Assembly (NCBI GenBank): GCA_902590705.1
Contig: CACIXU010000007.1
Coordinates: forward strand, 20,110-84,109
Reading direction: 5' to 3'
DNA length: 64,000 nt
Source of the DNA: an uncultured Bacteroidota bacterium
GTDB lineage: Bacteria; Bacteroidota; Bacteroidia; Flavobacteriales; Flavobacteriaceae
Shown here piece after piece: positions 16,101 to 23,148 of this stretch. How positions within the stretch are numbered: the first letter of the stretch is position 1; the number at the start of each line of letters is the position of its first letter. The position numbers and the translations under genes were made by a program. The notes beneath the pieces are model-generated. The model saw only the letters and a list, made by a program, of their open reading frames with translations. It had not been told where the DNA came from and made no database searches.

Positions 16101-18865
16101 ATTCAACTAATTATTCCGAGCCAGCGGGTGGTTGGGAATGGTTATATCCATCACTCTCTGCGAGCTCAACTTATTGTGATCTAGTTCTTGGTTCCACAAA
16201 TGGAAAAGTTTTTTCAAATACAATTTCTCTAACTGTTGGTCAAAATATCTCATCGCCTATTACCATTAACACAATTGAACCAATTCAATCGAGCCAAGAC
16301 AGTCTAACATGTGCAGCAATTCCAAGTTTTCAAAATTATCTTACATCTAATCCTGCTAATCAGAGTAATAGTTCAAATAGTACAATCACTACTCAAAACA
16401 ATGTAACAAGTGTAGCTGCTCAAACTATGGTAGTTAGTGTGGAGAATCTTCCAAATGGTTTATATTGGACTAAACCTGCAAATGATGGCTCAATGAAACT
16501 CATGGGAGCCCCTTCATCAACAGCTGGCACATATGTAGTTAATTATTCAATTGTAATTGGAGCTATTAGTAAAACATTATCATCTAGTTTTACAATAATC
16601 CTAAGCACAGCATCTAATACATCAAGCTCTACTGGCTGTTCCATAAATGCTGATCTTCAGGATACTGGTCTTCAAGTATCAACCATTTCAACTTCTAGCT
16701 CAACAATATCAATTCCATTTACAACAACGTGTTCTCAAACACTCACTCTTTTCTCCGATGGATTACCCCCTGGAATGCAAATGACTTTTTTCAATAATGT
16801 TGCCACCATATCTGGAACTCCAACGGGATCTGTAACTGGTACTTATGATTATATTATAGTCGTATCATCCGGAACAGCCTCAACAACAGTTAATGGGAGG
16901 CTATTATTTAATCCTGATGGGGACAATGATGGAGTTGAAGACCAATTAGATATCTGTCCTAACACAAATCCAGGAGATACTGTTGATGAAAATGGTTGTT
17001 CTAAAGTTCAATTAGATGCCGATTTGGATGGTATTTTAAATATAGACGATATATGTCCAAATACTTCTCCAAATGAATCAGCTAATGCAGAGGGTTGTGG
17101 AGAAACACAAGTTGATACTGATAAAGACGGAATTCCAGATATTTATGACAACTGTCCCACAACTGTTAATCCCGAACAATTAGACTATGATAAGGACGGT
17201 CAAGGTGATGTATGTGACCCAGATCCAATAATTGAGTTTAATGTTTCACTAATCAAAGAAAATGCTGAAATTGGAGCTGCTACTGGAAAGGTTAGTGCAA
17301 CAAGTACAATGGGACAAAAGATAACTTCAATAGAGTTTGATTCCGATGGATTTTTTAACCTGTCCAATAACCTAAGTATAATATTAGCAAGTGAGTTAGA
17401 CTATGAGGAAATGACATCACACTCGTTCATATTGACCGTTAAAACCGCTAATGGAGGGCAAACAACTGTTAAAGGAGAAATTCTTGTAGAGGATATACCA
17501 AACCCACAATATACAGCACCTTTTTTCATTTCGGTTTTTGACCTTGGACCAGGTACAATACCATTAACAGGTGAGGAGTTTGAAAGATATTATAATCCAT
17601 TTAATAGGGGAGTTGGTAAATGGAAGGTTAGAAAAAATATTAGCGGTGGTGCTGATGCTCATTTGTTTGCTATTAAGAGTGACCCCCCTAAAACTAGGAG
17701 ATCAGATGATGAAAGCGAGGGTTATCTTGCTTTTATTAATCCTCCTGACTTTAATAATCCACAAGACCACAATAAAGACAATATTTATGAAGTTGAAATA
17801 ACCTACGTGAATCTTGAGGATGGAGCTGTTGAGGTGCCTGTCCCTGTGACACAATTCCAACTGCAGGTCCCTGCAGGATCAATCAGTGCCCTCGAGCTTC
17901 AATCCAGGCCAGCACTACCAGATGACGATACCGATGGTGATGGTGTTCCTGATATTATTGACAACAGTCCTGTGGTATTTAACCCAGATCAGGCAGATGA
18001 AGATGGTGACGGTGTTGGTGATGTCTCTGATGATTTTGACCATGATGGGGTTTGGAATCCTCAGGATGAATGTCCTGAGACTCCCCTTGGCGTGAAAGTT
18101 GATGCATTTGGTTGTGAAATATTCTATCTACCTTCTGATAATTTCAATGTATACAAAACTGAAAGATGTGTTGATAATCATTCCATTGGAATTGAGTTTA
18201 AGAATATATCACATTCCTACACTATTAATATCTCTGGTGCTATGGATTACTCTGAGATTTTTAGTGAAAAACAGTGGATCATTACCAACCTATCCAGTGG
18301 ACAATACAATATCTGCCTTGGTGTCGATGGAATAAATAGTAATGAGTTTGAAAGGTGTTTCGAGATTAGGCTTAATGACCCCACTCCTCTTTCGGTATAT
18401 ACTAACAATTCAGATTTAACTGCTTTAGCTGATGATACCCTTGATTCGGTTAATTTTGAAATGGCTGGCGGATCAGTTTACAATATCGAGCATAATGGCA
18501 TAACAACACAGACCTCCCGATCCAGTCACTCGTTGGCCCTTAGAAAAGGTCTAAACACTGTTAGGATAACGACGGATCAAGAATGTCAAGGTGTTTTCGA
18601 AAAACAATATTTCAACTCTGAAACCATTGCCTATACACCAAATCCTTTTGAAGATGAATTGCTAATTTACGTAGGTGGGCAGGATGAAACTATTTTAGTT
18701 GAAATATTTACTACAGCTGGAAAACTCATTAGTTCTGATTATTACAAGCTCAATGAGTCTGATAGAAATATTTCAGTCAATACTTCTAATTATAAAATGG
18801 GAAGTTATTTATTCAAGGTTAATGCAAATACGGTGAAAAAATCTTTTATGGCCATAAAAAAATAA
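10118..18865 (+). CDS. giant modular surface protein: LamG, BspA/DUF285 repeats, TSP3, type IX sorting tail
   Basis: About 2,915 residues from ATG 10118; ATGs at 10160 and 10166 are alternatives nearer the signal peptide (LFLLFVPMYVFGQ). Order, counted from 10118: LamG-type jelly roll (about 41-261); a domain with QWQSFTISNTGQ (281-438); four DUF285 blocks (443-1739); a putative-Ig module with NLPPGISM; a stretch with GGWEWLYP that resembles a C-type lectin end; a second Ig module; thrombospondin type 3 Ca-binding repeats (2265-2369); a cadherin-like module; a conserved SGGADAHLF domain; more TSP3 (2600-2668); and a type IX tail beginning near YTPNPFEDELLIYV. It is probably secreted across the outer membrane and displayed as an adhesin. 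Partners and ligand are unknown. The last 323 residues are identical to those of the protein at 19568. Confidence 0.9.
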   Translation: MPSSILNYRYNLKFMLMDHFWRKFLFLLFVPMYVFGQSSTYSTTLDFNGSDSYITIPSGINDLSFSSDKFTLEAWIKIDNAPPSGSTSGNNTASNREYIFSKKNDWTFYVLNINGSLYLEGRFRRDYHGNWPAVRSSSTISTDTWYHVAFTNSKSDGRIRIYINGNLDNSENWTSGGYGLTSTTNPIGIGASIWNGVDNPTNFFDGEMSDIRFWDSERTQSAINYYKNSTLNTNSTLKLYYKLNEGSGSTINDLSGNSITGTARGSYQWTQLQTSARATPTGEVLDQENTSSNAGAGGTAQWQSFTISNTGQLSAVSWRMACPVIDGNAQPVRLSVYRGEGTGGALVAQSQNLTTPPYRDSNGSYISGEYVLFDMSSNNVSVSSNEVMTVKLELTSGNQDVGFLSLHTGNPYPRGRGSNNASWDYLFKAYVIPGSQSTTPTVYFENGTCKCPNASAGDTATISGTTYTVVNNSTIGGQISSGNYKLCTTLVTNMEGLFNGNTDNPDISFWDTSSVTNFRAMFWGSNFNQDISSWDTSSATSFEVMFYNAGSFNKNIGTWNTSSVTTMKGMFWNGANQFNNGGNSSIGNWDTSSVTDFSYMFANAGSFNQDIGNWDVSAATDMSVMFNNASSFNQDISSWCVGNISSLPSNFKTNSPLSNNNTPNWGSCPSPIVFDSGICKCPDASVGDTATISGTTYTVVNNSTIGGQISSGNYNLCTSLVTDMSELFKNNTSFNSNINFWDTSNVTRMDFMFQGATSFNQNIGNWNTSNVSKMERMFSSATSFNQNIGNWNTSSVINMSDMFSEARVFNQNISLWNTSNVTSMRGLFAGARAFNQPIGGWNTSKVTDMYMMFGSAYAFNQYIGEWDTSDVTNMGGMFDGATAYNQNMTLWCVSQFSSEPSGFSLNNSISNSNKPVWGSCPAPIVFDSGTCKCPGASVGDTATISGTTYTVVNNSTIAGQISSGNYNLCTTLVTSMAGLFTDNSNFNANIGFWDTSNVTSMNRMFWLASSFNQNIGNWDVSSVTDMEQMFNQTIFNQDIGNWDVSKVTNMHAMFRSNSQFNQDISSWNTSSVTSMIGTFENASSFNQNISSWNTSSVINMNYMFVGATAFNQPIGSWNVSSTTQMNGVFKNASAFNQPLGNWNTSNVTSMNEMFSGASAFNQNISSWCVGNISSQPTNFKTNAPLSNNNSPNWGTCPPPPGQIVFYSGTCRCPGVAVGQTATISGTTYTVVNNSTIAAQISAGNYNLCTTLVTDMNSLFKNKGSFNSNISFWDTSNVTTMSSMFHNAYAFNQNIGNWDVSSVTNMYYMFKNADSFNQNIGGWNTSSVTNMEETLFSMRDFNNGEAQGLSNNPLGWNTSNVTNMKNLLRGSNKFNQNIGSWDTSNVTDMSGLFHSATRFNQNIGNWNTSNVTTMLEMFHGASSFNQNIGNWNVTKVQNMRSMFSNATAFNSNIGTWTISSTTDMSYMFAGASDFNQNINTNNGKWNMSSVTTIEGMFHNASYFDQYLNNWDTSNVTSMIGVFDGASAFRGNISNWNTAKVTNMRNMFQGAIAFNENLGNWNTSAVTNMSGMFANARVFNQNIGNWNTSSVTNMQSMFHNARAFNQPIGNWDTSSVTNMQSTFDSAIAFNQDIGDWDVSAVTKTEGMFYGTIFNQDISNWNTGSITNFNYMFKAAQFNRNIGQWNTSNATSMTGMFNNNSAFNQNISSWCVGNISSLPTDFKTNSPLSNNNTPNWGTCPNPVCSISINLTSNAPTQTQSVTLGGSISAVTFAVTSSLCTSTLTVSATNLPPGISMIYNNNVASISGTPTNQATGTYNYLITASSSSTVVSVTGSIIVIDRPFSFNNYWRINGNTGNVEEPNNSCNSVSCENNAYLGFVSGPPSHPQYNSMVYVDYGSGGDSLNWIIEVNQSVSSITSYTLVGNHNNSNYFISNLKTNNIENLVARFNNVNTSEGSVGAKLLTIESITEYNYLNNLFLNGGPIAQNEPYIFGLYQNVNSTNYSEPAGGWEWLYPSLSASSTYCDLVLGSTNGKVFSNTISLTVGQNISSPITINTIEPIQSSQDSLTCAAIPSFQNYLTSNPANQSNSSNSTITTQNNVTSVAAQTMVVSVENLPNGLYWTKPANDGSMKLMGAPSSTAGTYVVNYSIVIGAISKTLSSSFTIILSTASNTSSSTGCSINADLQDTGLQVSTISTSSSTISIPFTTTCSQTLTLFSDGLPPGMQMTFFNNVATISGTPTGSVTGTYDYIIVVSSGTASTTVNGRLLFNPDGDNDGVEDQLDICPNTNPGDTVDENGCSKVQLDADLDGILNIDDICPNTSPNESANAEGCGETQVDTDKDGIPDIYDNCPTTVNPEQLDYDKDGQGDVCDPDPIIEFNVSLIKENAEIGAATGKVSATSTMGQKITSIEFDSDGFFNLSNNLSIILASELDYEEMTSHSFILTVKTANGGQTTVKGEILVEDIPNPQYTAPFFISVFDLGPGTIPLTGEEFERYYNPFNRGVGKWKVRKNISGGADAHLFAIKSDPPKTRRSDDESEGYLAFINPPDFNNPQDHNKDNIYEVEITYVNLEDGAVEVPVPVTQFQLQVPAGSISALELQSRPALPDDDTDGDGVPDIIDNSPVVFNPDQADEDGDGVGDVSDDFDHDGVWNPQDECPETPLGVKVDAFGCEIFYLPSDNFNVYKTERCVDNHSIGIEFKNISHSYTINISGAMDYSEIFSEKQWIITNLSSGQYNICLGVDGINSNEFERCFEIRLNDPTPLSVYTNNSDLTALADDTLDSVNFEMAGGSVYNIEHNGITTQTSRSSHSLALRKGLNTVRITTDQECQGVFEKQYFNSETIAYTPNPFEDELLIYVGGQDETILVEIFTTAGKLISSDYYKLNESDRNISVNTSNYKMGSYLFKVNANTVKKSFMAIKK
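11446..15333 (+). repeat. four blocks of in-frame DUF285 (BspA-like) repeats
   Basis: The unit is about 25 residues (75 bases) with the pattern FNQNIGNWDTSNVTDMxxMF. By eye I count 5, 6, 7 and 17 units in the four blocks. Each block opens with the same header (CKCP, then GDTATISGTTYTVVNNSTI and NYNLCTTLVT). Each closes with a cap carrying WCV, which runs into a GSCP or GTCP. Approximate block limits are 11446-12130, 12131-12885, 12886-13720 and 13721-15333. The whole block, not only the single unit, therefore looks like the duplicating module. DUF285 repeats form leucine-rich-repeat-like solenoids in BspA-type surface proteins. Confidence 0.9.

Positions 18866-23148: not shown

What the first reader, a model, noticed from the sequence alone, without database searches (positions are those of the whole stretch)
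17894..23148. Perfect 1,673-base direct repeat covering an adhesin tail plus a whole lipoprotein gene
Bases 17894-19566 and 21476-23148 are identical on line-by-line reading, silent sites included, while the 253 bases before each copy differ at about 27 places by hand count with no gap. The sharp edge means either a very recent tandem duplication with later divergence of the left part by recombination, or recent gene conversion. Recombination between the copies would delete 3,582 bases and remove the whole LamG-TSP3 gene, fusing nothing and leaving one intact adhesin-lipoprotein pair, a route to reversible copy-number change.
Basis: seen in the sequence. Interest (0 to 1): 0.75.

Follow-up and report, generated by a model that had tools for sequence, protein, structure and literature searches.

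The report
Self-copying tail of twin adhesin genes
Two neighbouring surface-protein genes of a likely marine bacterium have different front ends but an identical shared tail plus lipoprotein gene, and relatives with the same old gene pair show that this shared end is likely re-copied from one gene to the other again and again, which would keep the display end matched while the likely adhesive front ends change.

Summary
The recent-duplication reading fails: two related species hold the same two cassettes at the same place and spacing, so the pair predates their split. Yet in each genome copy A matches copy B, while genomes differ from each other, silent sites included. In three genomes, 53 sites right of the edge follow the genome and 0 the copy; left of it 3 follow the genome and 155 the copy. 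A fourth genome shows the same in a probably independent pair. This is most likely recurrent gene conversion (concerted evolution) of one module: the adhesin's type IX tail plus a fibronectin-III lipoprotein. The left edge differs by genome; the right edge always lies in the lipoprotein's last two codons. Such a tail precedes this lipoprotein at 40 of 41 loci. No reads were available; two assemblies are likely short-read, so a few sparse differences could be hidden.

The parts
10070..18865 (+). Adhesin A: LamG domain, 28 copies of a DUF285/PARCEL repeat, TSP3, type IX secretion C-terminal domain (first codon uncertain)
   Evidence: ORF; Pfam DUF285 1248 bits, Laminin_G_3 80.7, TSP_3 62.7, Por_Secre_tail 29.2 (cut-off 27); repeats
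18870..19568 (+). Lipoprotein A, 232 aa, lipobox LLAC, fibronectin-III domain; stop TGA overlaps the first possible ATG of the next gene
   Evidence: model with mean pLDDT 88.8 and 18 strands
19565..22447 (+). Adhesin B: LamG (25.8 bits, below the 27.6 cut-off) + TSP3 + type IX C-terminal domain, 960 aa; first ATG likely 19577, since the G019 gene begins at the matching ATG
22452..23150 (+). Lipoprotein B, same 232 aa as A, stop codon TAA
17894..19566 (+). Repeat copy A: last 323 codons of adhesin A plus lipoprotein A (most recent conversion tract)
21476..23148 (+). Repeat copy B: last 323 codons of adhesin B plus lipoprotein B
17620..17893 (+). Older zone of partial homogenisation left of the edge (11-13% A-B difference in three genomes, against 35-39% in the next bin to the left); ends in a patch of 13 differences in 28 bases
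21202..21475 (+). Matching older zone in copy B
23171..24007 (+). Fatty-acid hydroxylase gene, right-hand anchor of the locus in relatives
8527..10008 (+). Sulfatase gene, left-hand anchor of the locus in relatives

Best explanation
The repeat is the shared end (tail plus lipoprotein gene) of two old tandem cassettes for likely adhesins, and it is most likely kept identical by repeated one-way copying (gene conversion) between them. Shown: the pair is older than the split of three species; within each species the two ends match; between species they differ, also at silent sites; the left edge lies elsewhere in each species, and the right edge always lies in the last two codons of the lipoprotein gene, where homology ends. 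Inferred: the copying is RecA-dependent recombination, which would start in the identical stretch, run left until the copies become too different, and be stopped on the right by the end of homology. Inferred: the tail (export and anchoring by type IX secretion) and the lipoprotein work together, so that copying them as one unit would keep every adhesin matched to its lipoprotein while the heads, likely the binding parts, stay free to differ.
For: Same order and same 3,582 spacing in G019 and G006. The exact A=B stretch begins 976, 685 and 442 bases before the lipoprotein start in G000, G019 and G006 and 535 before it in G004. Site classes in six aligned copies of three genomes, gap-free two-state columns only: left of -976, 155 copy-following, 3 genome-following, 182 other; from -976 to the last sense codon 0, 53 and 42. 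Silent differences between G000 and G019: lipoprotein 20-21 in 232 codons, tail 23-30 in 325; within G000 none in 557 codons. Trees: left part gives A with A and B with B, lipoproteins pair by genome. Further lineages at protein level: A-type P0118 has the same last 325 residues as B-type G013_B (100%) but 90.5% to G000 A; P0122 (A) and P0117 (B) agree at 99.4%, against 93.8-95.7% to the copies of G000, G019 and G006. Such a tail precedes the lipoprotein at 40 of 41 loci.
Against: No reads were available. G019 and G006 bear single-cell plate names; the workflow of those plates used Illumina reads and SPAdes (PMC6122165, passages), and whether these two records came from exactly that workflow was not checked. 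The technology of G000 and G004 is unknown. A graph assembler can merge sparse differences inside a repeat. The tree of the whole 423-residue tail does not pair copies by genome: G000_A groups with G019_A (99/99), because it includes the part left of -976. Conversion is not separated from unequal exchange through a three-cassette stage. Identity is not universal: P0100 and P0102, tagged N9H73_02640 and _02650 by a source, both with a longest contig of 52,259 bases, differ at 6 residues and one gap. The functional link of tail and lipoprotein is neighbourhood evidence only. Donor direction is only suggested: between -976 and -685, G000 has the B base at 20 of 22 sites where G006 copies differ and 12 of 14 where G019 copies differ, but most of the G019 differences are private to G019 copy A.
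Confidence: 0.86

Rival explanations
1. A very recent tandem duplication made the repeat, and the left part later diverged by recombination.
For: Perfect identity and tandem order.
Against: The same pair with orthologous B proteins (95-96% aa over the whole protein; 91-92% over the first 400 codons) lies in G019 and G006, and a B protein 88% identical in G013. The 235 residues before the tail are 39-49% identical between A and B types in every A-B comparison, and form two separate lineages. A fresh duplication would have to repeat itself in each species at the same spacing.
Confidence: 0.03
2. Assembly artefact: a near-identical repeat was collapsed and written twice.
For: Likely short-read assemblies in two genomes; identity begins sharply; metagenome clusters with a lipoprotein of this group have short contigs (longest contig above 5 kb in 1 of 43, against 13 of 22 in the 55-58% group), as expected where a repeat breaks assembly. 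Strain mixture could do the same.
Against: If A and B of G000 had evolved apart since the species split they would differ about every 20-50 bases (G000 against the others, right of -685), which assembly graphs keep apart; for G019 and G006 the figure is 30-90 bases, so the argument is weaker there. These assemblies keep differences up to 112 bases apart. The left edges differ by genome. The copies have different flanks in all four genomes. A-type and B-type proteins of the G013 lineage, from different records, share a tail. P0100/P0102 suggests that tandem copies can be assembled as different.
Confidence: 0.06
3. Unequal crossing-over: cassettes expand to three and shrink to two, which also homogenises the ends.
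For: Direct repeats 1.9 kb apart allow it. Copy number differs between species: two (4 genomes), one (G015, G017), a decayed lipoprotein remnant in G021.
Against: No three-cassette locus was seen among the 22 genomes of the genus, though many are incomplete. Spacing is unchanged in three species.
Confidence: 0.12
4. Purifying selection alone keeps the two ends alike.
For: The module changes slowly in protein (0.4-1.3% in the lipoprotein between the three species).
Against: Silent sites are identical within a genome but differ between genomes.
Confidence: 0.01
5. A switch: recombination between the copies reversibly changes cassette number to vary the surface.
For: Geometry permits a 3,582-base deletion. 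G005 has an A-type adhesin and its lipoprotein directly before the hydroxylase gene, as a deletion would leave it, but its contig ends upstream.
Against: Loss of the LamG head cannot be reversed from within one cell. The B gene is retained in G000, G019, G006 and G013. No population data were at hand.
Confidence: 0.08

Closest known systems
Long-lasting concerted evolution of prokaryotic paralogues (Wang & Chen 2018, PMC6053082; abstract, outline and passages seen)
   Same: Paralogues in one genome resemble each other more than orthologues, at silent sites too; that paper infers recurrent gene conversion and finds 22 of 26 such genes in protein complexes.
   Different: The terms adhesin, surface and lipoprotein do not occur in its main text. 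Here the unit is the last third or less of one gene plus its neighbour, with sharply different heads.
HMW1/HMW2 adhesin loci of Haemophilus influenzae (PMC8262952 and PMC3983070, passages seen)
   Same: Two paralogous adhesin loci, each with its partner genes; very different binding domains; gene conversion proposed to swap binding domains between loci.
   Different: Two-partner secretion; partners are a pore and a glycosyltransferase; loci in separate regions of the chromosome. Here type IX secretion, a lipoprotein neighbour, tandem loci, and the shared part is at the C-terminal end.
Adhesin + PorP/SprF cassette repeated in Flavobacterium psychrophilum (PMC5808330, passages seen)
   Same: A repeated type IX adhesin cassette flanking a large inversion, in a related bacterium.
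   Different: The partner is a PorP/SprF membrane protein plus an outer-membrane protein; the copies are inverted and far apart.
PARCEL / DUF285 surface proteins (PMC2996958, abstract and outline seen)
   Same: Adhesin A carries this repeat (TIGR02167 400 bits).
   Different: The PARCEL repeats lie in the head, outside the 1,673-base repeat.

Membership tests
Concerted evolution by gene conversion | Duplication older than the species split | tested here: met
   Same pair, orthologous B gene and spacing in three species; A and B left parts form separate lineages
Concerted evolution by gene conversion | Paralogues in a genome more alike than orthologues, silent sites included | tested here: met
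   53 genome-following against 0 copy-following sites right of -976; silent counts
Concerted evolution by gene conversion | Tract edges that differ between lineages | tested here: met
   Left edges at -976, -685, -442 and -535
Concerted evolution by gene conversion | Non-reciprocal transfer rather than unequal exchange | not testable with these tools
   Needs recombinants or strain series
Type IX secretion type-A cargo | C-terminal sorting domain above the curated cut-off | tested here: met
   Por_Secre_tail 29.2 and 31.1 bits (cut-off 27); TIGR04183 23.2 and 25.1 bits (cut-off 23)
Type IX adhesin with PorP/SprF partner | PorP/SprF gene next to the adhesin | tested here: not met
   The neighbour matches fibronectin-type domains only and no NCBIfam model
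Surface-exposed lipoprotein (SPII with lipoprotein export signal) | Lipobox and export signal after the cysteine | tested here: inconclusive
   LLAC lipobox followed by SSNDE seen in the translation; no signal predictor was run; the export signal is described in PMC11885536 (passages), its consensus is recalled
HMW1/HMW2-type paired adhesin loci | Two-partner secretion domain and TpsB pore | tested here: not met
   Domains found are LamG, DUF285, TSP3, Por_Secre_tail and fn3, no TPS domain or pore; it works like it, but is not a member

The most novel reading that the evidence does not exclude
The tail-plus-lipoprotein unit is a common docking end that also serves as a recombination arm: heads are exchanged between cassettes and between species by crossovers inside the shared tail, while conversion keeps tail and lipoprotein matched as a two-part display machine. 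Adhesin A of G006 is a mosaic of this kind. Its 235 residues before the tail are 92-96% identical to A proteins of the G013 lineage but about 80% to G000 and G019. Its first 300 residues are 94% identical to G000 A against 88% to P0121 of the G013 lineage. In its tail it shares G013's base at 33 of 66 diagnostic sites left of -750, but at only 8 of 200 to the right (the -750 border was chosen after seeing the list).
Probability: 0.35. Interest if true: 0.7.

Novelty: new variant of a known kind. Interest (0 to 1): 0.5.

Why it matters
It gives a natural record of gene conversion acting on part of a surface protein: one end homogenised again and again, the other left free. That makes a prediction that can be tested, namely that the type IX tail and the small lipoprotein behind it act together. 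The pairing is found at 40 of 41 loci examined. Three full-text searches of the held library listed 7, 4 and 4 papers; none of their titles or abstract openings names such a lipoprotein partner, and I looked inside only two of them (PMC5613140 and PMC11885536, passages). The locus also warns that short-read assemblies may break at, or average over, the display end of such proteins.

Tried and rejected
Promoter-like matches were no more frequent than in shuffles (60 found, 59.6 expected); terminator-like matches were somewhat more frequent (14 against 8.1, sd 2.9), four of them being two sites that the repeat doubles, and were not pursued. No switch or separate promoter is claimed. Donor direction B to A in G000 was examined and left open. 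A search for an A-type adhesin in G013 found no clear one, so G013 counts as 'B seen, A not seen'.

Led little further: the tail model has mean pLDDT 72.7 and pTM 0.46 and was not searched. The lipoprotein model matches many tandem fibronectin-III pairs (best 3pdd, E 4.4e-9, TM only 0.33-0.39), which names a fold type and no function. A profile search of solved structures gave fibronectin-type domains of titin, chitinase and neogenin. The first paper search returned one unrelated paper. Gene conversion with type IX secretion gave five papers; in two of those opened (PMC5714932, PMC5808330) the words 'gene conversion' occurred only in the reference list. The single genome-contig scan returned 6 loci.

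Rows dropped: in the contig-length comparison I used 43 lipoprotein clusters of 91-99% identity (P0001-P0043) and 22 of 55-58% (P0049-P0071 without P0067) out of 115 listed. In one search I used all 41 loci held with 1.5-kb flanks from the lipoprotein searches, of 77 matches listed; several come from the same genome or locus and are not independent. In one of the 40 (L058) the tail frame is broken and ends about 450 bases before the lipoprotein match; in the other 39 it ends no more than 133 bases before it.
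Full report
What is there. Its relatives are titled Flavobacteriaceae or uncultured Bacteroidetes, two of them from marine single-cell plates. Between a sulfatase and a fatty-acid hydroxylase gene lie four genes in one direction, nearly without gaps: a giant adhesin A (10070-18865), a lipoprotein (18870-19568), adhesin B (19565 or 19577 to 22447) and a second lipoprotein (22452-23150). 'Adhesin' is an inference from domains: LamG, DUF285/PARCEL repeats (A only), TSP3 and a type IX C-terminal sorting domain.

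Not a recent duplication. Genomes G019 and G006 of the same genus hold the same two cassettes at the same place and the same 3,582 spacing. Their B proteins are 95-96% identical to ours over the whole length. So the duplication is older than these species.

Concerted evolution. Within G019 and G006 the ends of A and B are again identical, but the identical stretch begins 685 and 442 bases before the lipoprotein start, against 976 here. In G019 it ends at the last sense codon, whose last base differs; in G006 and here it ends inside the stop codon. Between genomes the same region differs by 1.1-4.6% right of -685, and by 1.7-12.4% between -976 and -685 (bins). In the six aligned copies, counting gap-free columns with two states, 155 sites left of -976 follow the copy, 3 follow the genome and 182 do neither. 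To the right, up to the last sense codon, 0 follow the copy, 53 the genome and 42 neither; one copy-following site lies in the stop codon. Fisher's test on these counts gives 1e-46, but sites within one tract are not independent. Silent sites agree: 20-21 silent differences in the lipoprotein and 23-30 in the tail between G000 and G019, none within G000. So 43-51 silent differences would be expected between A and B had they evolved apart since that split. Between G019 and G006 the silent counts are lower (lipoprotein 10-11).

Trees. Left of the tail, A copies group together (95/94, with G005) and B copies together (100/100); lipoproteins are identical in pairs within G000, G019 and G006. The tree of the whole 423-residue tail is mixed, because it includes the part left of the tract edges: G000_A groups with G019_A there.

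More lineages. In G004 the two lipoproteins differ only in the last residue, an exact stretch of 1,219 bases links the two ends and stops at the last sense codon, and both are about 49% identical to ours. Its A and B also group together left of the tail (100/99; the tree program warns of long branches there), so its pair probably arose independently. At protein level, A-type (P0118, P0120, P0121) and B-type (G013_B, P0119) proteins of the G013 lineage share the tail (98.2-100% over the last 325 residues) although their left parts are 47-49% identical. A further lineage, P0122 and P0117, does the same (99.4%, left 39%). These proteins come from different records, so they show a lineage pattern, not two copies in one cell. 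P0118 comes from a contig of 2.1 Mb. Counter-example: P0100 and P0102, neighbouring by tag, differ at six residues and a gap.

The unit. The right edge always lies in the last sense codon or stop of the lipoprotein gene, where the two cassettes stop being homologous. The left edge varies. A step from 35-39% to 11-13% difference in all three genomes, about 1,250 bases before the lipoprotein and near the start of the conserved NPFNRG stretch, marks the outer limit of older copying. The tail belongs to a large family: at least 620 proteins matched (7,989 candidates scored), and the 120 listed carry LamG, DUF285, cadherin and other domains (domain names other than LamG and DUF285 are recalled from Pfam numbers). 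Such a tail lies upstream of the lipoprotein at 40 of 41 loci held with flanks; the exception is a weak match in G033. In our own genome all five lipoprotein genes found follow such a protein. A two-gene unit is therefore well supported by neighbourhood; joint function is inferred.

Copy number. Among 22 genomes of the genus: two cassettes in G000, G019, G006 and G004; one in G015 and G017; B only, with the contig starting at the beginning of adhesin B, in G013; one seen with the contig ending upstream in G005; a broken locus in G018; a decayed piece of about 50 residues of the lipoprotein between sulfatase and hydroxylase in G021; hydroxylase without a lipoprotein in the 1.0-1.5 kb held before it in nine (G016, G007, G020, G001, G010, G014, G002, G012, G008); not assessable in G003, G009 and G011.

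Mosaic heads. Adhesin A of G006 follows different relatives in different parts: its first 300 residues G000 (94% against 88% for P0121), the 235 residues before the tail the G013 lineage (92-96% against 80%), the end of the tail its own group. The change lies near -750: G013's base at 33 of 66 diagnostic sites to the left, where G000_A, G019_A and G006_B have it at 7, 7 and 2; to the right 8 of 200, where those have 9, 8 and 7. The border was chosen after seeing the sites, and the diagnostic sites were defined against a majority that leaves G006_A out; the right-hand side serves as control. This points to recombination between lineages with an end inside the tail.

Assembly question. No reads could be inspected. 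A graph assembler could hide a few isolated differences. It should not hide the 2-5% expected for G000 without conversion, because differences 20-50 bases apart stay separate, and these assemblies keep differences up to 112 bases apart. For G019 against G006 the expected spacing is 30-90 bases, so the argument is weaker. The single-cell workflow is reported to have 5 mismatches per 100 kb in benchmark cultures (PMC6122165, passages).

Mechanism. Committed reading: RecA-dependent, one-way copying between direct repeats, stopped by loss of homology; shown as pattern, inferred as process. Unequal exchange through three cassettes remains possible. Selection for a matched tail and lipoprotein is plausible, since most of the lasting cases in prokaryotes listed by PMC6053082 encode complexes (22 of 26, passages), but closeness of the copies alone could also suffice.

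Papers and what was seen: PMC6053082 abstract, outline, passages; PMC5266723 and PMC2996958 abstract and outline (the first also passages); PMC8262952, PMC3983070, PMC5808330, PMC5714932, PMC6122165, PMC5613140 and PMC11885536 passages only. All others only as search listings.

Noticed in passing
L067 (G021:C85) between sulfatase and fatty-acid hydroxylase: A decayed piece of about 50 residues of the lipoprotein marks a locus where the adhesin cassette seems to have been lost.
   Followed up: partly
window 11446-15201: Adhesin A holds 28 copies of a 62-base PARCEL/DUF285 repeat and three to four copies of longer repeats spaced 690-840 bases apart; the protein is 2,931 residues here and 2,450 in G006, repeats in relatives were not counted.
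   Followed up: no
L036 (G006) adhesin A, 4299-11651: Mosaic gene: the part before the tail is close to the G013 lineage, both ends are close to its own group.
   Followed up: partly
L043 (G018:C15) 17578-19459: The adhesin and lipoprotein frames are broken into pieces, and the hydroxylase gene beside them too; decay or assembly error.
   Followed up: no
G000:C4:66390, C4:80902 and C15:4939 (L044, L045, L047): Three more adhesin-lipoprotein pairs in the same genome, with lipoproteins 30-36% identical to ours, each directly behind a protein with a related tail; not part of the homogenised pair.
   Followed up: partly
P0225: The shared tail also occurs on a protein that a source names alpha-agarase, so the module may carry enzymes as well as adhesins.
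   Followed up: no
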